NCBI GenBank assembly: GCA_017937125.1
Contig: JAGBEH010000012.1
Location: 1-64,000 of the forward strand
Direction: 5' to 3'
DNA from: Alistipes sp.
GTDB lineage: Bacteria > Bacteroidota > Bacteroidia > Bacteroidales > Rikenellaceae
DNA length: 64,000 bases
Every line of letters starts with the position of its first letter. The first letter of the stretch is position 1. Positions 6,003-37,578 of this stretch are shown here, one piece after another. A model generated the notes under the pieces. The model was not told where the DNA came from, did not search any database, and saw only the letters and a list, made by a program, of their open reading frames with translations. A program made the translations under genes and the position numbers.

Positions 6003-8078
6003 ATGAGAATTATCAAAACACTGACACTCAATCTTTTTGCCGCCCTTGCACTGACATTGGCAGGTTGCGGGTCCGACAACGGCGTACACATCGACGACGG
6101 CGGTAACGGCGGCGGAAACGAGGGGGGGGGAGAAGTCGTCGGAGGCGACGGATCCTTCAAATTCACCGTATCCGAAATATCGGGTGCGAGCGCAACGGTA
6201 CAGGTGGCGCCGACGGACAAAACGGCGACATACTGCTACGATGTCATCGAAAAGTCGGTATTGGACGGCTATAACGACAAGACCTCGTTTATAAACGAAT
6301 ATGTCGCCCAGCTCAAGGAGTTAGCCGATATGTACGGAGCCATTCTGGGCGTTACATTGGAAGACCTGCTGTCGAAAGGCGACGAGAGCTACGATTATAT
6401 GGCATATTTCGAACCTTCGACCGATTATTACGTATTCGCAGCCGGCGTTTCGGCAGACGGAGCGGTCACGACCGACGTTTCGGTATTCCCGTTCTCGACC
6501 ACGGCACCGAAGAAGTCGAACAACACGTTCAGGGTGACCGAAAGCAACGGCTACGTCACGGTAACGCCGTCCGACAACAACGACGTATATATCTGGGATA
6601 TTCTCGAATCGGCGGAGATAGCAGGCGCGACCGACAGCGAAATCATCGCCGATGAGATAGCATACCTCAAAGAGGAAGACGAAATTTCGTCCTACGCCGT
6701 AAAAGGCGCCGACGAATACGACTATTCGGAAGGGCTGACTTCGGGGACCGAATACACCGTCATCGTATTCGGCTACGACGGCGCGGCATCCACGGCTCTC
6801 ACCAAATACGCATTCACATACAACGGCAGCGGTTCGGGCGGCGAAGGCGGCGGCGAAATCGGTGCGGGACAAGGCGTCTACAGCGAAACTTTCGCAGGCT
6901 ACACGGGAGGTCCGCAGTCTCCCTACAAGGCGTCGGACAGCTTCACGAGCACCGCGACGGGCGTAACGTGGTCGATAGAGTACGGCGTAATATCGCAGGA
7001 CAACGACAATGCCTCGTTCGCATACGAAAACTGCCTCACGATGGGCGGCAAGAGCGGCAAAGCCGATGACGGACAGTCCACAATCACATCGAGCGTACTC
7101 AATGACGGAATCACGAAACTCTCGTTCGCGTACATCGCCAATGCGGGCAAAATACTCGAAGTGCAGGTTCTCTCGGGAGGCTCGGTAGTATGGACGAGCG
7201 GCGAACTCGAACTCGACAACAATTCCGGAGCGACGCCCAAAACCCTCTCGTTCGACATTACGGGCGCTTCGGCGAATGCCGTAATCAAGTTCGTAAACGT
7301 ATCCTCCGCACGCCGCATATCGATAGGCAATATCTCGTGGACCAACGCCACGGGCGAAGGCGGCAACGGCTCGGGCTCCGGTTCGGGTTCGGGCGGCGGC
7401 GAAGGCGGCGATGAAGGCTCGGATTTCACCACGCTGACGCAGGATGTCGCATATACGGCGACGAAAGCCGAAGCGGGATACTACGGCGACTATTACGAGA
7501 CGGGGACCAACAACTGGATGCTCATCCTGAGCAACAGTTCGGATTACGAGATAATGTGCGAGTTCTTCACCGAACTGGGCAACAACAATCCCGCAGGCCG
7601 ATACGACATCGACTGGGAGGTAGTCACCGGTGCGGCAGGAACGGGTCTGGCAGGCGACGTCGATTCCGAAGGGTATATTTACGGATCGTGGTATTGCAAC
7701 GGCGACGTATCGGATTATGCGGCAGCGGCTTACGGGTCGATTGCGATAGAGCAGAACGGCAGCGGATACAACGTATCGGTAGAATTGATCGACGACCTCG
7801 GGCACACGGTTTCGTGCAACTATACGGGTGCCCTCTCGATATACGACGGCAATGAAGAGACGGACGCCGTCTCGTCGAAAAGCGTCGGCAACCGTCGCGG
7901 GGCGATCAAAACCCTCCACCGTTTCAGTTCGACGCACGCGGCGGCCAATGCTGCCCGCAGGGCGGCCGTAACCAAGACGGCGGCTAATACCGACAAAGGT
8001 TTCGGCATCTGCAACCGCATCGCACGCGGCGGCAAAACGGTCACGACAAAACTGTCGGCCAAACATTTCGGCAAATAA
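6003..8078 (+). CDS. large multidomain surface lipoprotein with Gly-rich linkers
   Basis: This 691-residue lipoprotein has the lipobox LTLAGC (Cys22) after a hydrophobic signal. A Gly-rich linker follows (about residues 31-47), encoded partly by a run of nine G at 6122-6130. Next come two similar beta-sandwich-like repeats: one starts FKFTVSEISGASATVQVAP (about 50-165), the other NTFRVTESNGYVTVTPSD (about 175-280), each with a V-D-I-L/I-E-S core and a late Y-x-V/F-x-G strand. A second Gly/Ser/Glu linker leads to a possible carbohydrate-binding-like domain (ETFAGYTGG onward). A third linker (about 460-475) precedes a last domain. The final 60 residues are strongly basic. I cannot name the family. 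The ATG at 6003 begins the signal peptide; the frame is open upstream but non-coding in character. Confidence 0.8.
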   Translation: MRIIKTLTLNLFAALALTLAGCGSDNGVHIDDGGNGGGNEGGGEVVGGDGSFKFTVSEISGASATVQVAPTDKTATYCYDVIEKSVLDGYNDKTSFINEYVAQLKELADMYGAILGVTLEDLLSKGDESYDYMAYFEPSTDYYVFAAGVSADGAVTTDVSVFPFSTTAPKKSNNTFRVTESNGYVTVTPSDNNDVYIWDILESAEIAGATDSEIIADEIAYLKEEDEISSYAVKGADEYDYSEGLTSGTEYTVIVFGYDGAASTALTKYAFTYNGSGSGGEGGGEIGAGQGVYSETFAGYTGGPQSPYKASDSFTSTATGVTWSIEYGVISQDNDNASFAYENCLTMGGKSGKADDGQSTITSSVLNDGITKLSFAYIANAGKILEVQVLSGGSVVWTSGELELDNNSGATPKTLSFDITGASANAVIKFVNVSSARRISIGNISWTNATGEGGNGSGSGSGSGGGEGGDEGSDFTTLTQDVAYTATKAEAGYYGDYYETGTNNWMLILSNSSDYEIMCEFFTELGNNNPAGRYDIDWEVVTGAAGTGLAGDVDSEGYIYGSWYCNGDVSDYAAAAYGSIAIEQNGSGYNVSVELIDDLGHTVSCNYTGALSIYDGNEETDAVSSKSVGNRRGAIKTLHRFSSTHAAANAARRAAVTKTAANTDKGFGICNRIARGGKTVTTKLSAKHFGK
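6122..6130 (+). repeat. G9 homopolymer inside lipoprotein gene
   Basis: Nine consecutive G lie about 40 codons into the reading frame, just after the lipidated Cys. Gain or loss of one base would shift the frame. In the sequence given the frame is open. Confidence 0.9.
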
Positions 8079-26829: not shown

Positions 26830-26861
26830 TTTGTTTTATTAAATTGAAATATATACATTTG
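26830..26861 (+). promoter_or_regulatory. strong Bacteroidota-type promoter of the fimbria-like operon
   Basis: TTTG (26830-26833), exactly 20 bases, then TACATTTG (26854-26861). This is a complete match to the Bacteroidota consensus. Transcription should start near 26868, just before the DUF3575-type gene. Confidence 0.85.
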
Positions 26862-26892
26862 CGAACATTTATGAATTATGCTGACGCCCCAT

Positions 26893-28275
26893 ATGCGTAA
26901 TTTACGAATATTGTTGATAACCGCAATAGTCATTGCGGCTGTTTTCGCTTCGGAGGCCCGAGAAGTCTGCGACGCCTCTCATCATACCGATTCTACTGCC
27001 GTAGTTCGGGACGACACCGTTTTTTTGTTCCGTTTCAAAAGCCGTACAAGTATGTTCTTTATGCATTTCGATGATAATGAACCTACGATTCGTGCTGCCG
27101 CGGAAATGATAGAGCGCAACCGTGAAGCCATCAGGAAAGGCGATATGTATGTGGTCGTGCACGGCTACTGTTCGTCGTTCCTTACCGAATATTCGAATAT
27201 GGCTATGGCTCGCAACCGAAGCAACCAGGTGAAATCGTATTATATTACGAATCACGGGTTGAAGGAGGATAATTACCGCACCAAGAACCATACAGTACCT
27301 TACAACGGCGATAAGGATGTCGTCGCTATGATGCGTCTCGAAGTGGCGTACGGTTCGACCCCCCCCCGAAAAATATCTGAAAATCAATGTTTTGCCGCTG
27401 ACACGACGGTTTCGGTTGCAGAAACTGCAAATACCGTTGGGTCTATGAATCTCGCAAAAGAACAAGCACCTACCGACCTTACCCGTGAAACGGAATCTGC
27501 CGTCGAATCGACGATCGAAATGTCGCCGAAACGAACGGAACCCGTAGAACCTGAAGCGAATATAGTATCGGGCGGCAAAACAGATACGGCGATTGCGGCG
27601 GATTCCGTCGCAATCGTACCCGTCTCTTCCGAGACCGTCGCAAATGCGGAACCGTTGTCCGCCGATAACGGTGCGGCTACGAACCCCTCTTCGGAAACGG
27701 TTGCGCATACTTCGGTTACTTCCGACGATGCGCATGGCGAGAGCGTTTCCCGAGTTTCCCGACAGGAAAACGCTGGCGTATGGCGCGACGGCCGCTGGAA
27801 CCTGAAGACTAATATCCCGTTCTGGGCGCTGGTCGTTCCGAATATAGCCGTAGAGTACAGATTCGCAGACCATTGGTCGGTGGACGTACCTATATATTAT
27901 ATGGCCGGAACCGTTGCGCGCAATTATCGTTTCCGTACGCTTGCGGTGCAGCCGTCGGTGCGCTACTGGCTCAAGCCCGAGATGAACGGCCATTTCTTCG
28001 GCGTACATCTGTCGGCGGGACAGTTCAACATCTCGGTAGACAAGAAAAACCGCTATCAGGATGTGAACGGTATGTACGGTGCGGGTATCGATTACGGCTA
28101 TGCGTTGAAATTCAATGATCGGTGGGGTATGGAGTTCAACATAGGTGCCGGATATATCTATACGAAATACAATACCTACTACAACATCGATAACGGTGCG
28201 CGGTTCGATACCGACCGCAAGAACTATTTCGGTGTCACACGGTTGGGTATTTCGGTAATTTACAGAATCAAATAA
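26893..28275 (+). CDS. DUF3575-type outer-membrane protein with OmpA-like N-terminal part
   Basis: This 460-residue protein starts with signal peptide MRNLRILLITAIVIAAVFASEA. Residues about 40-150 resemble an OmpA-like peptidoglycan-binding unit (FRFKSRTSMF to MARNRSNQVKSYYITNHGL). A hydrophilic Thr/Glu/Ser/Ala-rich linker spans about 155-290. The C-terminal 165 residues form a DUF3575-like beta-barrel (WNLKTNIPFWALVVPNIAVEY to GVTRLGISVIYRIK, each a strand). DUF3575 genes commonly head fimbrial loci in Bacteroides and Porphyromonas. A C9 run falls at the linker start (near residue 156). An in-frame ATG at 26878 is an alternative start, but the signal peptide fits 26893. The next gene begins 10 bases after the stop. 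Confidence 0.85.
   Translation: MRNLRILLITAIVIAAVFASEAREVCDASHHTDSTAVVRDDTVFLFRFKSRTSMFFMHFDDNEPTIRAAAEMIERNREAIRKGDMYVVVHGYCSSFLTEYSNMAMARNRSNQVKSYYITNHGLKEDNYRTKNHTVPYNGDKDVVAMMRLEVAYGSTPPRKISENQCFAADTTVSVAETANTVGSMNLAKEQAPTDLTRETESAVESTIEMSPKRTEPVEPEANIVSGGKTDTAIAADSVAIVPVSSETVANAEPLSADNGAATNPSSETVAHTSVTSDDAHGESVSRVSRQENAGVWRDGRWNLKTNIPFWALVVPNIAVEYRFADHWSVDVPIYYMAGTVARNYRFRTLAVQPSVRYWLKPEMNGHFFGVHLSAGQFNISVDKKNRYQDVNGMYGAGIDYGYALKFNDRWGMEFNIGAGYIYTKYNTYYNIDNGARFDTDRKNYFGVTRLGISVIYRIK
27023..27041 (+). repeat. 19-base direct repeat, copy 2
   Basis: Exact second copy of the sequence at 26632-26650, coding LFRFK in the DUF3575-type gene. The operon promoter and start codon lie between the copies. 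Confidence 0.8.
27359..27367 (+). repeat. C9 homopolymer inside DUF3575-type gene
   Basis: Nine consecutive C encode the ends of Thr-Pro-Pro-Arg near residue 156, at the border of the N-terminal domain and the linker. A one-base slip would remove the whole beta-barrel. The frame is open in this sequence. Confidence 0.9.
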
Positions 28276-28285
28276 CGCACGTGCT

Positions 28286-29266
28286 ATGGGAAGGTTTTTG
28301 AAAGAAATACTGCTTACGGCACTTACCGCTCTCTGCACTGCGGCGTGCGTACACGAATATCCCGAAAACGGAGGCGAGGATCCTACGCGTATCGAGACCA
28401 CAATACGTCTGACTACATGTCCCGAATTTACACACAGCTCGTTCATCGGTTCGCGTAATGAGGCTGAGTACATTTATTTCATCGTCGAAATCTACAAGGA
28501 TGACTACACGGGCAAACCCGTAATCCGCAAGGAGGTAGGTGCCGACCGTAATTTCGATGCTTCGGCAACGCTGGAATTCACCGAGTTCCTCAATGCCGGC
28601 AATTACAAGGTCGTCGCGTGGGCCGTATGTGCCGACGAGGCCGACGGCAGCGGCAAACTGTTCTCTACGGACGATCTGTCGAACATAGGCTATCTCGATG
28701 CCTATCGCGGCAGCGACGACCGCAAGGAGTGCTATGAGGTGCGCTTCGATATGCCTATCTCGTCGAACGACTGGTATTCCAGACAGACATACGACCGCAA
28801 TATGTACTGCCCGATGGGTAGCGTGGAGGTGATAAGTACCGATGTCAATGAGTTTTTCCGCCGTGTGGCGGCGTTGCGCTCGGATGCCACGTGGGAAGAC
28901 TACATAATCAAATGGATGTACGGAATGTATTTCCCCGTGGGTTACAACGTATATACGGGACGTCCAAACAAGGCCGAGACGCAGGTGGGATTCGTCAGCG
29001 ACATAACCCAGCAGAACGAGAACGAAGCATCGCTCGGATTCGACTACATTTTCGTTAATGGCGAGGAGTCGCAGGTGACGCTCACGCTGTTGCTCTACGA
29101 CCGCAAGACGGAGAAACTACTGAACGTATATGCCGATATTCCGGTACATCTGCGACGCGGCAAGACGACGATTATCCGCGGCGAATACCTTACGAACCGC
29201 AAGGATTCCGGAGCGGTTATCGATCCCGATTTCGAGGGCGATATAGATATCGTATTGCCCGATTGA
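28286..29266 (+). CDS. fimbrillin-like (Mfa2/DUF6562-like) lipoprotein, possible anchor subunit
   Basis: This 326-residue lipoprotein has lipobox Cys21 (LCTAAC). A beta-rich N-terminal domain includes NAGNYKVVAWAVCADEADG (about residues 110-128). A second domain has QNENEASLGFDYIFVNGEESQVTL in parts near 245-270, and the closing strand IPVHLRRGKTTIIRGEYLT resembles the IPVQRNYRTNVSGNLLT segment of the three downstream proteins. It is short, and its C-terminus ends with the shared fold rather than with a beta-helix. It could therefore be the base or anchor subunit of the same surface structure. It lies 10 bases after the DUF3575-type gene and 35 bases before the first large paralogue. Confidence 0.7.
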   Translation: MGRFLKEILLTALTALCTAACVHEYPENGGEDPTRIETTIRLTTCPEFTHSSFIGSRNEAEYIYFIVEIYKDDYTGKPVIRKEVGADRNFDASATLEFTEFLNAGNYKVVAWAVCADEADGSGKLFSTDDLSNIGYLDAYRGSDDRKECYEVRFDMPISSNDWYSRQTYDRNMYCPMGSVEVISTDVNEFFRRVAALRSDATWEDYIIKWMYGMYFPVGYNVYTGRPNKAETQVGFVSDITQQNENEASLGFDYIFVNGEESQVTLTLLLYDRKTEKLLNVYADIPVHLRRGKTTIIRGEYLTNRKDSGAVIDPDFEGDIDIVLPD

Positions 29267-29301
29267 CGATTATCCGAATTAATCAAATCAATATCTGACC
29301 A

Positions 29302-32271
29302 ATGAAAAAATTATTCTTATCGATTGTTATTCTTGTTGCAGGAATAACATCTTGCAGCCGAAACGATGTTTTGGATTCTGCTGCCGTTTCAGGCGAAACC
29401 GCTGTGACGATTTCAGCGGCTCTTCCCGCCGAGATGGACGGGACCCGCGCCGCAGGCGACGGCACTCAGGTAAACCGTTGCCAAATGGAGGTTTACCTCG
29501 ACGGACAGCTCTACGGCGAGCGTAAAGTGGCCGTCGTATCGGGCGGCGTAGCACGGTTCGAGATGCGCGTAGTCGCAGGCAAGACCTACGATTTCGTATT
29601 CTGGGCCGACGCTGCCAACGGTTCTGCGGTCGAAGACTTTTCCGACAACCATTACGACACGGGCGACTTCTCGAATGTCGTAATCAAGGATGCGGCCACA
29701 TACAAGGGCAACGACGATACGCGCGACGCGTTCTTCGGCAAGGAGACCGTGGAGATTACCGCTTCGCAGTCCGTGACCGCGAAGCTCTATCGTCCTTTCG
29801 GCCAGCTCAACATCAAGACGCTGGACATTCAGGAGGTCAAGGATGCCAATATCGTATCCCTCGTTCCGTCGCACGTGTCGATAGCTTTCGAGGACGTTCC
29901 TATGGGAATCAACCTCTTGACTGGCGAACTGCTTGAGACTACAGACGCCGTTGCATATACGGACAAGTGCGCCGTTATCGACGAGAACGGTACGTTGTCT
30001 ATGGACTACGTTTTCGCACCTAAGGGAACTGAACAGTATCTGGCCAATTTCACTATGTCGTTCTTCAATGCCGAAGGCGGCGAAGCGGCTGCGGACTATG
30101 AGTTTACGAATATCCCCGTTCAGCGCAACTATCGCACGAACGTGTCGGGTAATCTGCTGACGAAGAAAGCCGATATTACCGTAAATGTCATCCCCGGTTT
30201 CGAAAATGAGATAAGCGTAGGTCCTTGGGACGGGACGGTATCCGCACCCGATATCGACGAAGAGGCAAAGACCGTAGCGGTAAATTCTGCGGCTCAGGCG
30301 GCAGGCTTGGCCGAACTGGTAAACGGCGGCAACAGTCTCGAAGGTTACACCGTTTCGCTCGGCGTGGATTTGGATCTGAACAATATGGAATGGACTCCCG
30401 TAGGTAGCGGAGAACGTTCGGGTGACGTAGTTTCGGGCAATGGTTTCAAGGGAGTGTTCGACGGCCGGGGACATACGGTTTCCAATCTGAAAATATCTTC
30501 CACGCAGGGTGCGGACCATGCAGTCGCCCTCTTCGGAGCGGTGGACGGCGGTACTGTCAAGAACCTCAATATAGATGCCGATATAAATGTTCCGACGAGC
30601 GAGTTGGGCGGTGCGGCCGTGGGTGTTCTTCTGAACGGAGGTACGGTCAGCAACGTCGAGGTGCGCGGTAAGGTATCCGTGAAGAACGGCGGCGGCATCG
30701 TAGGTCGTGTTATAAAGGACGGTACAGTCGTCGATTGCAAGAACTACGCCGCAGTGTCGGGTACGAAAGCCAATATCGGCGGCATAGTCGGTGCTGCCTA
30801 CTATACTGCCGAAGGCAAGACGATGACTATCGAGAATTGCGAGAATCACGGTGCCGTAACGGGTACGAACTATGTCGTGGGCGGTATCGTCGGTCTGTCG
30901 GCTGCCGATGTCAGGAACTGTACCAACGAAGGAGCCGTTACGGGTAACGGCAACAGCATCGGAGGTGTCGTTGCCGAGCAGCAGAACGCCGGAAGCGTGA
31001 TAGGTTGCGTAAACAAGGCCGATGTCGAAAACAAGAATAATACGAATTCGTACGGAACGGGCGGCATCATCGGCTGGATGCGTTACAGCGGTGCCACGAG
31101 CGCCTATCCGTCGAAGAACATCATAGACGTTACGAACAACAAGAACTACGGTTCGATAAAAGGCGGTTCGGGCGTAGGCGGTATCGTCGGTACGGCTTAC
31201 AACTACGGCAACGTGAACGACAACAAGAACTATGCTCCCGCGCTGTCCGGAAGCAACTTCGTCGCCGGCATCGTGGGCAATGCGCAGTTCGCCGAGACGC
31301 CCGCAGGTATGACCGATCCTTATATGCTCAATGTCAAGAACAACTATTCATCGACCCCGATGAACGATATGACAGGCGGTTTGAAAGATCGTTTCGTATA
31401 TATCAACAATGCGGAATATGTTACTTTGGAGGGCAATACCCCTTCCGATGAAGAGTTCGTTCTCGACCAGCTCGCACAGGGCGGCGATGTCAAACTCGAT
31501 GCGGACGTGGATTTTGCCGCTATGGGCGGAACGTTCAATGTCGAGAGAGATACCAATATCGACCTGAACGGCAAGAAGGTCACGCTGTCTTCCGATCAGT
31601 TAGTGGTAAAATCGGGTGTGACGCTGACGATAGACGGCGAGGGTACGATGACGGCTCCCAACATTGTTATCGACAATGATGGCGGTAACGTAATCGTCAA
31701 TGGCGGAACTTTCAAGGCTACCAATGTCAATAGCGGCGCTGTCATATATAGTACCGGCGATGTGACGATTAACGGCGGTACGTTCGACACGAACAGCAGT
31801 CTCGCCATTCAGAGCGTTTACGGCAGGAACGTAACCATCAACGGCGGTACCATTACGTCGCGAGGTGCGGGGGATTACGGCATTCTTATGCACGGCTCCG
31901 GCGTATTGACGATTACGGGCGGCAAGATTACCGGCAACTTCGGCTGCATCCGCACTCACTCCGGTACTACCGTAAACATCTCGGGCGGCGAATTTATCTG
32001 TACGGGCAGATACTATGCGCTTTTCGTCGGAGGTGATTACGGCGGCAATGCGATAGCCAATGTTTCGGGAGGCAAGTTCCGCAGTACGAGTACGAGCAAC
32101 CCCAATGTCTGTATGTATGTGAACAGCGGCAGTACGTTGAATATTACGGGCGGCGAGTTCCAAAACAAGGGATACGACGCCAATACGAGTTCGGAGGTAG
32201 TTCCTGCGGCAGGTTATGTTTTCGCCGACAACGATGACGCGACCTATAAATTCAAGGTGGTAGCCGAGTAA
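29302..32271 (+). CDS. fimbrillin-like surface lipoprotein 1 (GLUG repeats plus beta-helix)
   Basis: This protein has 989 residues and lipobox Cys18 (GITSC). The shared N-terminal module (about 35-300) starts with EMDGTRAAGDGTQVNRC, with a possible trypsin-like processing site after Arg49, and ends at IPVQRNYRTNVSGNLLT. The C-terminal part is unique. About residues 325-690 hold GLUG-type repeats (GGIVG, with CENHGAVTG, CTNEGAVTG and similar units). Residues 720-970 form a right-handed beta-helix-like ladder (VTINGGTF, VTINGGTI, LTITGGKI, VNISGGEF). Such ladders serve as adhesins or glycan-binding stalks. It is the first of three mosaic paralogues in one operon. The alternative view, a plain surface lipoprotein, cannot be excluded. 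Confidence 0.78.
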   Translation: MKKLFLSIVILVAGITSCSRNDVLDSAAVSGETAVTISAALPAEMDGTRAAGDGTQVNRCQMEVYLDGQLYGERKVAVVSGGVARFEMRVVAGKTYDFVFWADAANGSAVEDFSDNHYDTGDFSNVVIKDAATYKGNDDTRDAFFGKETVEITASQSVTAKLYRPFGQLNIKTLDIQEVKDANIVSLVPSHVSIAFEDVPMGINLLTGELLETTDAVAYTDKCAVIDENGTLSMDYVFAPKGTEQYLANFTMSFFNAEGGEAAADYEFTNIPVQRNYRTNVSGNLLTKKADITVNVIPGFENEISVGPWDGTVSAPDIDEEAKTVAVNSAAQAAGLAELVNGGNSLEGYTVSLGVDLDLNNMEWTPVGSGERSGDVVSGNGFKGVFDGRGHTVSNLKISSTQGADHAVALFGAVDGGTVKNLNIDADINVPTSELGGAAVGVLLNGGTVSNVEVRGKVSVKNGGGIVGRVIKDGTVVDCKNYAAVSGTKANIGGIVGAAYYTAEGKTMTIENCENHGAVTGTNYVVGGIVGLSAADVRNCTNEGAVTGNGNSIGGVVAEQQNAGSVIGCVNKADVENKNNTNSYGTGGIIGWMRYSGATSAYPSKNIIDVTNNKNYGSIKGGSGVGGIVGTAYNYGNVNDNKNYAPALSGSNFVAGIVGNAQFAETPAGMTDPYMLNVKNNYSSTPMNDMTGGLKDRFVYINNAEYVTLEGNTPSDEEFVLDQLAQGGDVKLDADVDFAAMGGTFNVERDTNIDLNGKKVTLSSDQLVVKSGVTLTIDGEGTMTAPNIVIDNDGGNVIVNGGTFKATNVNSGAVIYSTGDVTINGGTFDTNSSLAIQSVYGRNVTINGGTITSRGAGDYGILMHGSGVLTITGGKITGNFGCIRTHSGTTVNISGGEFICTGRYYALFVGGDYGGNAIANVSGGKFRSTSTSNPNVCMYVNSGSTLNITGGEFQNKGYDANTSSEVVPAAGYVFADNDDATYKFKVVAE

Positions 32272-32302
32272 TTCAGGAATTTCGAACATTTCGGAAAAAA
32301 TA

Positions 32303-32334
32303 CTTCGGCGGGGACTTCGCCGTTCCTGCCGAAG
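32303..32334 (+). terminator. hairpin between paralogues 1 and 2
   Basis: CTTCGGC (32303-32309) pairs with GCCGAAG (32328-32334). No T run follows, so it may be an attenuator or an RNA-processing element that tunes expression of downstream genes. Confidence 0.4.
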
Positions 32335-32380
32335 CAATATGAATATAATCAAGTGAATTACAAGACCTTCCGTTTTTTGC

Positions 32381-32390
32381 GGGGGGGGGG
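32381..32390 (+). repeat. G10 homopolymer upstream of paralogue 2
   Basis: Ten consecutive G lie 30 bases before the start codon at 32421, right after TTTTTTG (32373-32379). Length change here would alter spacing in the 5' region of the second paralogue without touching its frame. Confidence 0.9.
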
Positions 32391-32420
32391 TAGTGATTCC
32401 GTTAAACACCCCAACCAACT

Positions 32421-34946
32421 ATGAAAAAATTGATTTTAGCGGCGGTTATGATGCTCGGCATCGTTTCGTGCCAGAAAAATGAAAACTTGGATTCGCCGTT
32501 CGGAGGCGAAGCCGCCGTTACCGTCTCCGCGGCTCTTCCCGCCGAGATGGACGGGACCCGTGCCGCAGGCGACGGCACTCAGGTAAACCGTTGCCAAATG
32601 GAGGTTTACCTCGACGGACAGCTCTACGGCGAGCGTAAAGTAGCCGTCGTATCGGGCGGCATAGCACGGTTCGAGATGCGCGTAGTCGCAGGCAAGACCT
32701 ACGACTTCGTGTTCTGGGCCGACGCTGCCAACGGTTCTGCGGTCGAAGACTTTGCCGACAACCATTACGACACGGGCGACTTCTCGAATGTCGTAATCAA
32801 GGATGCGGCCGCATACAAGGGCAACGACGACACGCGCGACGCGTTCTTCGGCAAGGAGACCGTGGAGATTACCGCTTCGCAGCCCGTGACCGCGAAACTG
32901 TACCGTCCTTTCGGCCAGCTCAACATCAAGACGCTGGACATTCAGGAGGTCAAGGATGCCAATATCGCATCTCTCATCCCGTCGCACGTGTCGATAGCTT
33001 TCGAGAACGTTCCTACGGGTATCGATTTGCTGACGGGAAAACTCACGGAAGCGACATCCCCTGTGGCATATTTCGAAAAATCGGCCGTCATCGACGAGAA
33101 CGGTACTCTGTCTATGGACTACGTTTTCGCACCCGACGGCACAGAACAGTATCTGGCGAATTTCACTATGTCGTTCTTCAATGCCGAGGGCGGTGAAGCG
33201 GCTGCCGACTACGGGTTTACGACTATTCCCGTACAGCGCAACTACCGCACCAACGTGTCGGGTAATTTTTTGACCAAGAAGACCGATATCACCGTAGACG
33301 TGATTCCCGATTTCGAGAATGAAGAGATAGATGTTCTTTTGTGGGACGGCTCGGCGACGGTAGAGATTACTCCCGTAGAAAAAGAGGTAGACGGTGCAAT
33401 GCGGTCGGTGTACGTTGTCGATACTCCTGCGCAACTGGCTTGGGTGGGTGAGCAGCTCAACAATAACAACGCCGCCGTGAAATTCATCGAACTGGCTGCC
33501 GATATAGATATGGGCGGCAATGCGTTCGTCATCAAACGTGCTGTCGGCGTGACATTAGACGGCAATAATCATAAAATCAGCAATTACAAGGCGTCTAATG
33601 TTCAGGCGGCAGGTCTTTTTGCAGAGGCGATTTCGAGTAAGTTCCGCAACCTGACCGTGTCCGGAGCCGATGTCAAGGCCGTAAATGACGGCGGCGGCAA
33701 TGCTTATGCCGGTGCGATCATCGGCCGTTCTTACGGCACGATAGTATTCGACAACTGTACGGTTATGAATTCGAAAGTCGAGGGAGTGAACAAGGTCGGC
33801 GGTATGATAGGGTTCGTTGCCGAGAATCATATAGAAGCAGCTGACTGCAAGGTCGTCGGAAGTGTCATCTCTACCGAATACGTAGACGGAGAGTCGGGAC
33901 AGATAGGCGGTTTTGCGGGCTATCTCGGTTCCCAGTACAATTCGACGTGCTCGTTTGCGAACTGCTCGGTAGAGGATTGTGTTATCAATGCCCATATGGG
34001 CGAGCTCGGCACGAAGCGCGCCATAGGTAAGTTTATCGGCTGTATGCAGGCTTCGGCGGCTACGGATATTCTGACGGTAGATAATTGCAGCGTAAATAAT
34101 GTCACGCTCAACCGTTTGAACGATAATGCCAAGGCTTATCTGTCGGTTCACGGCGATATGCTCGGCGGAAAGCGCAACGCGGCAGGCGAGGTTACCATTA
34201 CAGGCTGCGATACGAATATCTACGTCTCCACACCCGAGCAGTTGAGGTATTTCGCTACTCTCGTGAACGGCGGGGACACGAATTTTGCGAACAAGGTTAT
34301 CGCACTCGAAAACGACATCGATCTGTCGGCTGCCGAGTGGACGCCCGTTAATTCGTGGAACGGTATTCTGAACGGTCTGGTACTGGACGGCGCAGGCTAC
34401 ACCGTTTCAGGTATGCACATTAACAATACTGCCACCGCAAGTATTTCCCTGGGCTTCTTCAATAACAATGCAAGCAAGATGACGGTGAAGAACATAACGT
34501 TCGACGATGCACGCATTATCGACAAGACTAATGCTAATCAGCATTACGCAGGCGTGATTATGGGTAAGAACTATTCCGTCGTTACGTTCGAGCAGGTGCA
34601 TGTAACCAATTCCATCGTTATCAACAACTGGCAGTGCGGCGGTTTGTGCGGATACGCCGAGGGCAATGCCCCCGTCTTCAACGGCTGCTCTATCTCCGAC
34701 AGCTTCGTGGGCGGCTATAATGCCACGAGCGGTACGATGTTCGGACTGGGACAGGTGGATGTAGTAGGCAGCGGCTGCTCGGCAACCAATGTCGAACTCT
34801 ATACCGACGGCCTGACGTGGAATTCTACGCAGCAACAGCTCGGGAATTTCTTCGTCGGAAGCCTTTACGGCAAATCTCTCAATGCGGGGGACTATGTCGA
34901 GACTAATGTAACGGTCGTAGCGGAGTATCCCGAAGGGTACAGATAA
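32421..34946 (+). CDS. fimbrillin-like surface lipoprotein 2 (GLUG/beta-helix C-terminus)
   Basis: This protein has 841 residues and lipobox Cys17 (GIVSC). Its N-terminal module (about 33-298) is nearly identical to paralogue 1, including EMDGTRAAGDGTQVNRC (Arg47). The C-terminal part is unrelated at sequence level. It has VDTPAQLAWVGEQLNN (about 332-347), an opening typical of GLUG/beta-helix domains, then repeats such as AGAIIGRSYGTIVFDNCTV and GGMIGFVAENH. A second similar unit starts VSTPEQLRYFATLVNGG (about 602-618). It ends NVTVVAEYPEGYR. The gene follows the G10 tract and a 149-base gap, so its expression may vary independently of the genes ahead. Confidence 0.78.
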   Translation: MKKLILAAVMMLGIVSCQKNENLDSPFGGEAAVTVSAALPAEMDGTRAAGDGTQVNRCQMEVYLDGQLYGERKVAVVSGGIARFEMRVVAGKTYDFVFWADAANGSAVEDFADNHYDTGDFSNVVIKDAAAYKGNDDTRDAFFGKETVEITASQPVTAKLYRPFGQLNIKTLDIQEVKDANIASLIPSHVSIAFENVPTGIDLLTGKLTEATSPVAYFEKSAVIDENGTLSMDYVFAPDGTEQYLANFTMSFFNAEGGEAAADYGFTTIPVQRNYRTNVSGNFLTKKTDITVDVIPDFENEEIDVLLWDGSATVEITPVEKEVDGAMRSVYVVDTPAQLAWVGEQLNNNNAAVKFIELAADIDMGGNAFVIKRAVGVTLDGNNHKISNYKASNVQAAGLFAEAISSKFRNLTVSGADVKAVNDGGGNAYAGAIIGRSYGTIVFDNCTVMNSKVEGVNKVGGMIGFVAENHIEAADCKVVGSVISTEYVDGESGQIGGFAGYLGSQYNSTCSFANCSVEDCVINAHMGELGTKRAIGKFIGCMQASAATDILTVDNCSVNNVTLNRLNDNAKAYLSVHGDMLGGKRNAAGEVTITGCDTNIYVSTPEQLRYFATLVNGGDTNFANKVIALENDIDLSAAEWTPVNSWNGILNGLVLDGAGYTVSGMHINNTATASISLGFFNNNASKMTVKNITFDDARIIDKTNANQHYAGVIMGKNYSVVTFEQVHVTNSIVINNWQCGGLCGYAEGNAPVFNGCSISDSFVGGYNATSGTMFGLGQVDVVGSGCSATNVELYTDGLTWNSTQQQLGNFFVGSLYGKSLNAGDYVETNVTVVAEYPEGYR

Positions 34947-34958
34947 CGGACTGTGACG

Positions 34959-34982
34959 GCGCGGAGCTGCAAAGTTCCGCGC
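34959..34982 (+). terminator. hairpin between paralogues 2 and 3
   Basis: GCGCGGA (34959-34965) pairs with TCCGCGC (34976-34982), 12 bases after the stop of paralogue 2. It lacks a T run, so read-through into paralogue 3 is expected. Confidence 0.45.
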
Positions 34983-35061
34983 TTCATATCGAAAAACATA
35001 ACAGTCTGATTACACTGATTCCCGTTTTCGAAATAGAGTAATTCTTAAAAAACATACATTT

Positions 35062-37518
35062 ATGAAAAAACTGATTTTTGCGGCTACGATGATGTTGTTC
35101 GGGTTTACTGCTTGCCAGAACGCCGATATCGACGGAATCGCTGCCGGCGGTGAGAGCATAGTTACTTTCTCCGCGACTCTTCCTGCCGAGATGGACGGGA
35201 CCCGCGCCGCAGGCGACGGCACTCAGGTAAACCGTTGCATTATGGAGATATATCTCAACGGCGTTTTGTACGGTCAGCCTTCTGTCGCTGTCATTTCTAA
35301 CAAACAGGCTACGTTCTCCGCACGCCTTATCTCGGGCAAGACCTACGACCTCGTGTTCTGGGCCGATGCCGCAAAGGGTACTACGGCAGAGGATTTCGAG
35401 GACAATCACTATGTTACCTCGTCGCTTACCAATGTCACCGTCAAAGATGCCGATGCGTATAACGGCAACGACGATACGCGCGACGCTTTCTTCGCTACGC
35501 AGCAGCTGTACGTCGAGCAGTCTTCTTCCGTTAATGTCAAGATGTACCGTCCTTTCGGCCAGCTCAACATCAAGACGCTGGACATTCAGGAGGTCAAGGA
35601 TGCCAATATCGCATCCCTCGTCCCGTCGCATGTGTCGATAGCTTTCAAGGACGTTCCTATGGGAATCAACCTCTTGACTGGCGAACTGCTTGAGACGACC
35701 GACGCGATAGTTTACGCGGAGAAATCGGCCGTCATCGACGAGAACGGTACGTTGTCTATGGACTACGTTTTCGCACCCAAGGGTACGGAGCAGTACCTTG
35801 CCGACTTCACTATGTCGTTCTTCAACGCCGAGGGCGGCGAAGCTGCTGCCGACTACGAGTTCACCAACATTCCCTTGCAGCGCAACTACCGCACTAACGT
35901 ATCGGGTAATCTTTTGACCAAGAAGACCGATATCACCGTGGACGTGGTTCCCGATTTCGAGGATGAAGATATAGACTATCCGATTACGGATGTCGTAACC
36001 GTTGCCGAGGCCAACGAGGCGTTGGCGGCAGGCAAGACGATAGTATCGGTAGCCGAGGCTCCGACCGCGGATGCCGAACTCATCCTTCCTCAATCGACTT
36101 CGCCCGTAACGGTATTGCTGCCTGCATTGACCCATAAGCTGACTGTAAAATACTCCGAAGGCGAGGTGAATCCCGAAAAGCTCGATTTGACCATTCCTTC
36201 GGTGGAGGATCTGGAAATCGTAACGCCCAATACCACCGTAACTCTCAACGGTGCTGCATACAATACGGTAAGCGCTTCGACGGCCGATAATACTCTTGTC
36301 GTAAGCGAGGATGTGGTTATCGGGGAATTGACGCTTGTGAAAGGCAATGCCAAACTCTACGGAGAGGTGAAGGCCGTAGTCAGGGCCGCCGGATATAAAG
36401 GTGTGGTCTATCGCTGCTTCGACTCGCAGACGAGCTTCGACAGACTGGTTGCCGACAACGTATCGGGATATGACGAAATCCTCGTCGAGAAACCCGTTGC
36501 TGCCGTCGATGCCAAAAATGCGGCGCTGACCCGTCAGCTGACGGTTGCGGCTCCCGCCACCATCAGCAACCTCAATATCGCCGTCGATTACAAGGGTGCA
36601 TACGGCCTTAAGATCGTCAGCGGCGCCGACAAGGTCGCAATCGACAATTTCGTCGTAAGTTCTACGAAAAACGCCGACCGTACGGCGTGGGTGGAGTGCG
36701 AAAATGCCGACTGTCTTTTCACGAACGGCAAGTTCATCGCTCCGACGCATGTTTCGGACAAATCGGGTCTCAATCTTGTTGCAGCCAGCGGAAAGGCCGA
36801 TATGAAGATAACGTTGGACAATGTCCTCATCAGCTCGTCGTCCGAACTTTTCAATGTAGACAAGACCGAAGATTACGAATATTCCGAAGCGCAGAAATCG
36901 CTTGTACCCGCATATTCGCGCGGTATTACTTTCGGTTTCCTCGGAGGCATCGATGAAACGAAGACTTCCAAGATCAAATTGACGATGAAAAATTCGGCTA
37001 TCGAGGGAGTTTATTACTGCATCAATGTCGTGCCTACCAACTCGACTATCGATGTCGATGTCGATAATTGCGTATTCGACGGCCGTGCTGCCTTGAATCT
37101 TTGGGGCAAGGGAGTCGGTACGTTCAATATCAAGGATTCGAAACTCATAGGCCGCAACTGGTTCGGCGGTCCGACCGAAGAGTTCGCGACGTTGGTTTAT
37201 AACTGGAACAGCCAAAATTTGTCGCAAGAAGCGGCAAATAAATCGGTGGTTTTGGACGGTTGCGACGTAGTGAGCGACAATAATCCCCAGACCGATACCA
37301 ACCGGCAGTATATGGCGTCTATCCGTTCGAGAGAGCATAACAGCCTCGAAATCAAGAACGGTACGATATTCCGCGAGACTGTCAATCCGCGTCTGGACTA
37401 TGCCGTGCAGGTACATTTCCCCGATGCGAATGACGTGGTGTGGGACGATACGTTCGAAATCCGCGGCAAGGAGGGTGCTGCCGTATGCGGCGGTGCTTTG
37501 GTGACCGTTGTCGAATAA
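35062..37518 (+). CDS. fimbrillin-like surface lipoprotein 3 (beta-helix C-terminus)
   Basis: This protein has 818 residues and lipobox Cys18 (GFTAC). The block EMDGTRAAGDGTQVNRC (Arg48) and residues from YRPFGQLNIKTLDIQEV to LTKKTDITVDV match paralogues 1 and 2 almost exactly. The stretch between (about 57-165, IMEIYLNGVLYG to SSSVNVKM) is clearly diverged, so the module itself is a mosaic. The C-terminal 500 residues are again unique. They have VAEANEALAAGKTIVSVAEA (about 313-332) followed by beta-helix-like rungs, for example LKIVSGADKVAIDNFVVSS and VDVDNCVFDGRAALNL. It ends the operon; a terminator follows. Confidence 0.78.
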   Translation: MKKLIFAATMMLFGFTACQNADIDGIAAGGESIVTFSATLPAEMDGTRAAGDGTQVNRCIMEIYLNGVLYGQPSVAVISNKQATFSARLISGKTYDLVFWADAAKGTTAEDFEDNHYVTSSLTNVTVKDADAYNGNDDTRDAFFATQQLYVEQSSSVNVKMYRPFGQLNIKTLDIQEVKDANIASLVPSHVSIAFKDVPMGINLLTGELLETTDAIVYAEKSAVIDENGTLSMDYVFAPKGTEQYLADFTMSFFNAEGGEAAADYEFTNIPLQRNYRTNVSGNLLTKKTDITVDVVPDFEDEDIDYPITDVVTVAEANEALAAGKTIVSVAEAPTADAELILPQSTSPVTVLLPALTHKLTVKYSEGEVNPEKLDLTIPSVEDLEIVTPNTTVTLNGAAYNTVSASTADNTLVVSEDVVIGELTLVKGNAKLYGEVKAVVRAAGYKGVVYRCFDSQTSFDRLVADNVSGYDEILVEKPVAAVDAKNAALTRQLTVAAPATISNLNIAVDYKGAYGLKIVSGADKVAIDNFVVSSTKNADRTAWVECENADCLFTNGKFIAPTHVSDKSGLNLVAASGKADMKITLDNVLISSSSELFNVDKTEDYEYSEAQKSLVPAYSRGITFGFLGGIDETKTSKIKLTMKNSAIEGVYYCINVVPTNSTIDVDVDNCVFDGRAALNLWGKGVGTFNIKDSKLIGRNWFGGPTEEFATLVYNWNSQNLSQEAANKSVVLDGCDVVSDNNPQTDTNRQYMASIRSREHNSLEIKNGTIFRETVNPRLDYAVQVHFPDANDVVWDDTFEIRGKEGAAVCGGALVTVVE

Positions 37519-37541
37519 CCTTGTCATTGCTTTGCAGAATC

Positions 37542-37578
37542 GGTCTCCCGTCTCTCAAGAGGCGGGAGGCCGTGTTTT
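37542..37578 (+). terminator. terminator of the fimbria-like operon
   Basis: GGTCTCCCGTCT pairs with AGGCGGGAGGCC, allowing G-U pairs, and TTTT follows. Confidence 0.75.

What the first reader, a model, noticed from the sequence alone, without database searches (positions are those of the whole stretch)
26893..37518. Five-gene surface operon with three mosaic fimbrillin-like lipoproteins sharing one N-terminal module
Seen: one strong promoter, a DUF3575-type barrel protein, a short lipoprotein, then three lipoproteins of 989, 841 and 818 residues. Their first 300 residues are nearly identical, but their C-termini (GLUG repeats, beta-helix ladders) are unrelated. Known: DUF3575 genes head fimbrial loci in Bacteroidales, and type V pilins are lipoproteins assembled by strand exchange. 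Inferred: a common assembly or anchoring module presents interchangeable adhesive tips, either together or alternatively. No small stalk pilin is visible, so the architecture may differ from known pili.
Basis: partly seen in the sequence, partly recalled or inferred. Interest (0 to 1): 0.8.

Follow-up and report, generated by a model that had tools for sequence, protein, structure and literature searches.

The report
Stalkless pilus-like operon, swappable tips
A gut bacterium carries a five-gene set that probably displays interchangeable binding tips on a shared pilus-type attachment module, and DNA features suggest that the tips can be switched on and off and are reshuffled during evolution.

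The parts
26830..26861 (+). Bacteroidales-type promoter TTTG-N20-TACATTTG upstream of gene 1
   Evidence: 3 matches in the window, 0.33 expected
26878..28275 (+). Gene 1: OmpA-like domain (27067-27282) and DUF3575 barrel (27793-28269)
27359..27367 (+). C9 tract inside gene 1 (codon ~160), between the two domains; C8 at the frame break of the sister-species gene
28286..29266 (+). Gene 2: DUF6562 lipoprotein in the anchor position; ends in a short strand-like segment right at the stop
29302..30216 (+). Gene A, DUF6562 head (pilin fold); Arg49 codon at 29446-29448
30247..31437 (+). Gene A, GLUG-type tip segment (shared with L116, L136, L142)
31459..32268 (+). Gene A, second tip segment (relatives in L142 and, at 34%, L125)
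32381..32390 (+). G10 tract, 30 bp before the ATG of gene B
32421..33329 (+). Gene B, DUF6562 head; conserved Arg codon at 32559-32561
33330..34943 (+). Gene B, tip (homologous to the tip of L112a, 69% over 490 aa)
35062..35970 (+). Gene C, DUF6562 head; conserved Arg codon at 35203-35205
36007..36453 (+). Gene C, connector segment found behind heads with other tips (L112a, L119, L122, L136, L125 and others)
36454..37515 (+). Gene C, distal tip (no Pfam domain)
37541..37572 (+). Terminator-like hairpin after gene C

Best explanation
The operon encodes a short, probably stalkless relative of the type V pilus. Gene 2 is a lipid-held DUF6562 anchor. Genes A, B and C are tip proteins that share a pilin-fold DUF6562 head and end in different binding domains. 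Proposed working: each tip reaches the surface as a lipoprotein; an Arg-specific surface protease (one clostripain-family gene is in the genome) cuts after Arg49 and removes the first strand with the lipid; the open groove takes up the C-terminal strand of the single shared anchor. One anchor and several tips means that tips compete. Poly-C and poly-G tracts let gene 1 and tip gene B, and many tip genes of the genus, switch by slippage; gene conversion keeps heads alike while tips are traded. Shown: family, predicted fold, conserved basic residue, gene order, swapping, identity blocks, tract enrichment, one frame break at a tract. Inferred: cleavage, strand donation, competition, lack of a stalk in the finished structure, switching.
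For: Fold: pLDDT 85.8, pTM 0.80; the 26 top rows of the structure comparison are Bacteroidales fimbrial/adhesion entries. Maturation residue: 40 R and 8 K of 48; the assembled FimA entry 6kmf aligns from model residue 31, next to it, while prepilin entries align from residue 14. Pfam Mfa2 (anchor) family matches 10 of 48 heads, best 8e-7. Gene order equals that of two DUF3575-DUF5119-Mfa_like_1 operons in the same genome. Clostripain-family gene at C4:625596-626327. Swaps. Gene conversion: 356 identical nt between the two L112 heads; A/C and B/C runs exceed 2000 of 2000 permutations. No small subunit between anchor and long gene in 9 of 24 loci, and no match with an open frame under 333 aa in the 7 such genomes searched. 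Tracts: 19 of 47 against 1 of 117, C9/C8 at the frame break.
Against: No experiment. A 268-aa DUF6562 gene elsewhere in the genome and Mfa_like_1 pilins of two other operons could supply a stalk. A and C have no tract upstream; the tract of B is not kept in the sister species, and 0 of 32 long genes in the named loci have one. B's and C4's tracts do not sit in a recognisable promoter spacer. The C8/C9 difference is between two species and could be an assembly error. Permutation P for cross-species pairs reaches 0.0025, so conserved stretches explain part of the identity blocks.
Confidence: 0.5

Rival explanations
1. An ordinary type V pilus whose stalk is made elsewhere: the 268-aa DUF6562 protein of contig C4, or a Mfa_like_1 pilin of another operon, polymerises between the gene 2 anchor and the tips.
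For: The C4 gene is intact and lies beside a fourth long gene and an anchor remnant; in 15 of 24 anchor-containing loci such a gene sits between anchor and long gene; two Mfa_like_1 operons are in the genome.
Against: 12 of the 16 aligned small proteins stop directly after the NY..NVT strand and so lack the last strand of heads and anchors (the four closest, L113, L114, L115 and L117, have longer tails). Seven genomes whose operon lacks the small gene gave no stand-alone small protein.
Confidence: 0.25
2. Not a pilus at all: each long protein is an independent lipid-held adhesin that keeps its whole pilin-fold head as a pedestal; gene 2 is just a paralogue.
For: In this genus many long genes stand alone without anchor gene next to them (for example L116, L118, L128, L130, L142).
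Against: The basic residue after the first strand is kept in 48 of 48 heads; anchor and long genes stay together in 24 loci over several genera.
Confidence: 0.2
3. The poly-G tracts are not slippage switches but fixed regulatory elements, for example small-RNA targets in the 5' leader.
For: Tracts before B and the C4 gene lie 30 and 26 bp from the ATG; lengths cluster at 8-10. A G-repeat targeted by a small RNA is reported in Helicobacter pylori (title seen in a reference list).
Against: Three tracts of the genome lie exactly in a TTTG-N19-TAnnTTTG spacer; others lie in early codons of lipoprotein genes; the gene 1 tract coincides with a frame break in the sister species.
Confidence: 0.25

Closest known systems
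Type V pili (FimA and Mfa1 fimbriae of Porphyromonas gingivalis; Bacteroides relatives)
   Same: Lipoprotein subunits, predicted FimA/Mfa fold, basic residue at the maturation position, tips with an extra C-terminal domain, DUF3575-headed operon with anchor before tips (PMC12632263 passages; PMC5954841 passages)
   Different: No stalk pilin in the operon; anchor and tips are one family (DUF6562); three tip genes in a row; no detectable sequence match of the head to any solved structure at E below 0.3
Mfa2/FimB-type anchor proteins (Pfam PF08842)
   Different: DUF6562 is scored as a separate family and fits all 48 heads far better
Homopolymer-tract phase variation (as in Neisseria, Campylobacter)
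   Same: G or C tracts of 8-11 upstream of, or early in, surface-protein genes, three of them in promoter spacers
   Different: A Bacteroidales genus; the passages read of review PMC11868660 name invertases, not tracts, for Bacteroides; variation within a population was not observed here

Membership tests
Type V pilus | Subunits have the FimA/Mfa beta-sandwich fold | tested here: met
Type V pilus | Subunits are exported as lipoproteins | tested here: met
   Lipobox-type Cys near residue 18-21 in gene 2, A, B and C, Cys invariant in 48 of 48 aligned heads; by sequence inspection, no predictor run
Type V pilus | Arg cleavage site after the first strand | tested here: met
   40 R and 8 K of 48 heads; cleavage itself not testable
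Type V pilus | Stalk pilin gene in the operon | tested here: not met
   No ORF of that kind between gene 2 and A (35 bp) or elsewhere in 26878-37518
Type V pilus | A stalk available from another locus | tested here: inconclusive
   268-aa DUF6562 gene on C4 and Mfa_like_1 genes exist; use by this operon unknown
Type V pilus | Donor-strand assembly into a filament | not testable with these tools
   No complex prediction or microscopy available
Type V pilus | Tip with C-terminal ligand-binding domain | tested here: inconclusive
   Extra C-terminal domains of 514-685 aa are present; ligand binding not testable, tips not folded
Homopolymer-tract phase variation | Tract enriched where it can alter expression | tested here: met
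   19 of 47 long genes against 1 of 117 control ORFs in the genus sample; 56 runs of 9 or more in the genome against 3, 9 and 8 in three simulations
Homopolymer-tract phase variation | Tract length varies and decides on/off | not testable with these tools
   One genome per species; between species C9 in frame (window) and C8 at a frame break (L112)

The most novel reading that the evidence does not exclude
DUF6562 operons are a two-part, stalkless branch of the type V pilin world: one anchor receives any of a shuffled, slippage-switched library of tips, so that Alistipes-type gut bacteria vary surface binding through homopolymer contingency tracts plus gene conversion, a mode not found described for this phylum in the papers searched.
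Probability: 0.35. Interest if true: 0.78.

Novelty: new variant of a known kind. Interest (0 to 1): 0.62.

Why it matters
It gives a structural and likely functional reading to DUF6562, a Pfam family of unknown function that no paper in the searched library names and whose head has up to 17 matches per genome in this genus. It points to a possible route, besides the invertible promoters and diversity-generating retroelements named in PMC12632263 (passages), by which gut Bacteroidales vary surface adhesins. The tracts make this directly testable by counting repeat lengths in reads that already exist.

Tried and rejected
Sequence search of the head against solved structures found no relative, nor did searches with the three tips or with a Mfa_like_1 pilin of the genome; only the predicted fold gave a match. 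A motif (ATCAA-N5-TTACA) seen by eye near tracts occurred, at up to 2 mismatches, in 26 of 79 long genes and 53 of 537 other ORFs, without fixed spacing, and was dropped as an effect of A+T-rich DNA. No inverted repeat of 11 nt or more was found around the promoter of gene 1. The sigma-70 scan was at chance (11 found, 11.2 expected). The small DUF6562 protein as the stalk was weakened, not excluded. hhalign of the head profile with one Mfa_like_1 pilin matched only its first 108 positions at probability 57. A structure job for full-length gene C (alignment A3) never ran, so no tip was folded.

Rows dropped or left out: skip ORFs with under 250 bp upstream and repeated upstream ends; the 47/32 split of the 79 long genes and the 24/15/9 locus counts were made by hand; L115, L116, L118, L128, L130, L140 and L142 (7 of 31 loci) have no called anchor and are not in the 24; one search left out one near-duplicate of 69 proteins; of the 56 tracts, 55 were looked at in context (the one on C12 was not fetched). 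Loci L013-L061 were picked for having the head; the genes are paralogues, so the Fisher P values (3e-14; 3e-11) overstate independence.

Full report
What is there. One search gives five same-strand ORFs: gene 1 (465 aa), gene 2 (326 aa), A (989 aa), B (841 aa) and C (818 aa). A Bacteroidales-type promoter lies at 26830-26861 and a hairpin at 37541-37572. Pfam finds OmpA-like and DUF3575 in gene 1, full-length DUF6562 in gene 2 (7e-67), DUF6562 in the heads of A, B and C (1.5e-30, 3.3e-31, 7.3e-30), and GLUG in A. NCBIfam gave nothing above its cut-offs. Gene 2 and the heads are thus one family (hhalign probability 98.9).

Context. The genome has two other DUF3575-headed operons: DUF3575, DUF5119, Mfa_like_1 twice, then 898 aa; and DUF3575, DUF5119, Mfa_like_1 twice, then 685 and 1048 aa (the 685-aa protein was not scanned). 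The window operon has the same order with DUF6562 proteins in anchor and tip positions and nothing in the stalk position. Of the 31 loci, 24 have a called anchor; in 15 of them a 226-320 aa DUF6562 ORF lies between anchor and long gene, in 9 it does not, one of these having it downstream (counted by hand). In the genomes of seven of these nine loci every match of the small-protein profile lies in an open frame of 333 aa or more, while two control genomes gave a small protein (frames 267 and 272 aa, E 3e-100 and 1e-93) (completeness of these genomes is not told). The window's own genome keeps a 268-aa gene beside a fourth long gene on contig C4, next to a resolvase gene and an anchor remnant with stops.

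Shuffling. A's GLUG part is 60% identical to L116 and 55% to L136, whose head is only 35% identical; A's whole tip is 54% identical to L142. B's tip is 69% identical to part of L112a, 48% to L115 and 50% to L119 (Butyricimonas). C's tip is 63% identical to L112b and 52% to L114. L112a has a B-type tip behind a ~150-aa connector that the window has in C. Of 265 pairs with a tip alignment of 200 aa or more, 34 have tips at least 10 points more alike than the heads, 33 of them between different loci; L116 and L142 share 402 aa at 89% with heads at 60%. Conversely, C and L112b match over their whole length at 67%, as orthologues would. The two heads of L112 share 356 identical nucleotides. In permutations of the 357 variable sites of five heads, L112a/L112b, A/C and B/C exceed all 2000 (P 0.0005); A/B gives 0.0065, and cross-species pairs reach 0.0025, so conserved stretches contribute.

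Tracts. The genome has 56 distinct G or C runs of 9 or more (66 overlapping matches, merged by hand), against 3, 9 and 8 in three simulated genomes with the window's dinucleotide make-up. Of 55 looked at, 31 lie between ORFs and 24 inside an ORF of a crude caller (counted by hand). Three lie in an exact spacer TTTG-N19-TAnnTTTG. B has G10 30 bp before its ATG and the C4 long gene G9 at 26 bp. Over the loci sampled, 19 of 79 long DUF6562 genes, 0 of 54 short or partial ones and 1 of 345 other ORFs have a sense-strand G run of 8 or more within 250 bp upstream; for sense-strand C runs the numbers are 0 of 79, 0 of 54 and 3 of 345. All 19 are among the 47 long genes of the window and the genus sample, none among the 32 of the named loci; within the genus sample the control is 1 of 117, and that one sits just before the anchor gene of a DUF6562 locus (L061). 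Gene 1 has C9 in frame; in L112 its homologue is split between two frames at C8. Ten other DUF3575 genes have no G or C run of 6 or more, so among the genes checked this tract is confined to the window species and its sister.

Reading. The evidence supports a pilin-fold attachment head shared by an anchor and by exchangeable tips. Cleavage, strand donation, a stalkless finished structure and switching are inference. Because a stalk pilin in the operon was looked for and not found, I do not file it as a type V pilus; it works like the anchor-and-tip part of one.

Prior art. DUF6562: 0 papers. DUF3575: 2 papers, listing only. Homopolymeric tract, phase variation and Alistipes: 0. Three of five phase-variation terms: 144 papers, 20 listed. 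Poly-G tract and Bacteroidetes: 1 paper, listing only, on AB5 toxins and Campylobacter jejuni. Homopolymeric, phase variation and Bacteroidetes: 10 papers, passages read in four; PMC3090145 suggests slippage at a run of four Cs in a Bacteroides fragilis polysaccharide locus. Passages of the phase-variation review PMC11868660 name invertases for Bacteroides. Subscription papers and preprints could not be searched.

Noticed in passing
L155 (own genome C6:354500-368000); arms at L103 1394-1410 and 1541-1557: A resolvase gene beside a canonical type V operon, with a 17-nt inverted repeat (94%) enclosing 130 nt that holds a G9 tract and, by eye, a TTTG-N21-TATATTTG promoter pointing away from the operon: a candidate invertible promoter.
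   Followed up: partly
L080, L087, L106:3636 (own genome): Three surface-type genes whose promoter spacer of exactly 19 nt contains a G9 tract: candidate spacer-length switches.
   Followed up: partly
window 6122-6130: G9 tract near codon 39 of another predicted lipoprotein gene.
   Followed up: no
L042 (own genome C4:838000-850000): A decayed second DUF6562 locus: resolvase gene, anchor remnant with stops, intact 268-aa and 743-aa genes, G9 tract before the long gene.
   Followed up: partly
L050 12699-13283; L059 780-1364: A similar 194-aa ORF (looks like an ECF sigma factor, judged by eye only) flanks DUF6562 loci in two genomes.
   Followed up: no
L059 4911-8468 and 13919-17536: Two long genes on one contig with 99.7% identical tips over 861 aa but heads only 83% alike, the reverse of the head homogenisation in L112.
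   Followed up: no
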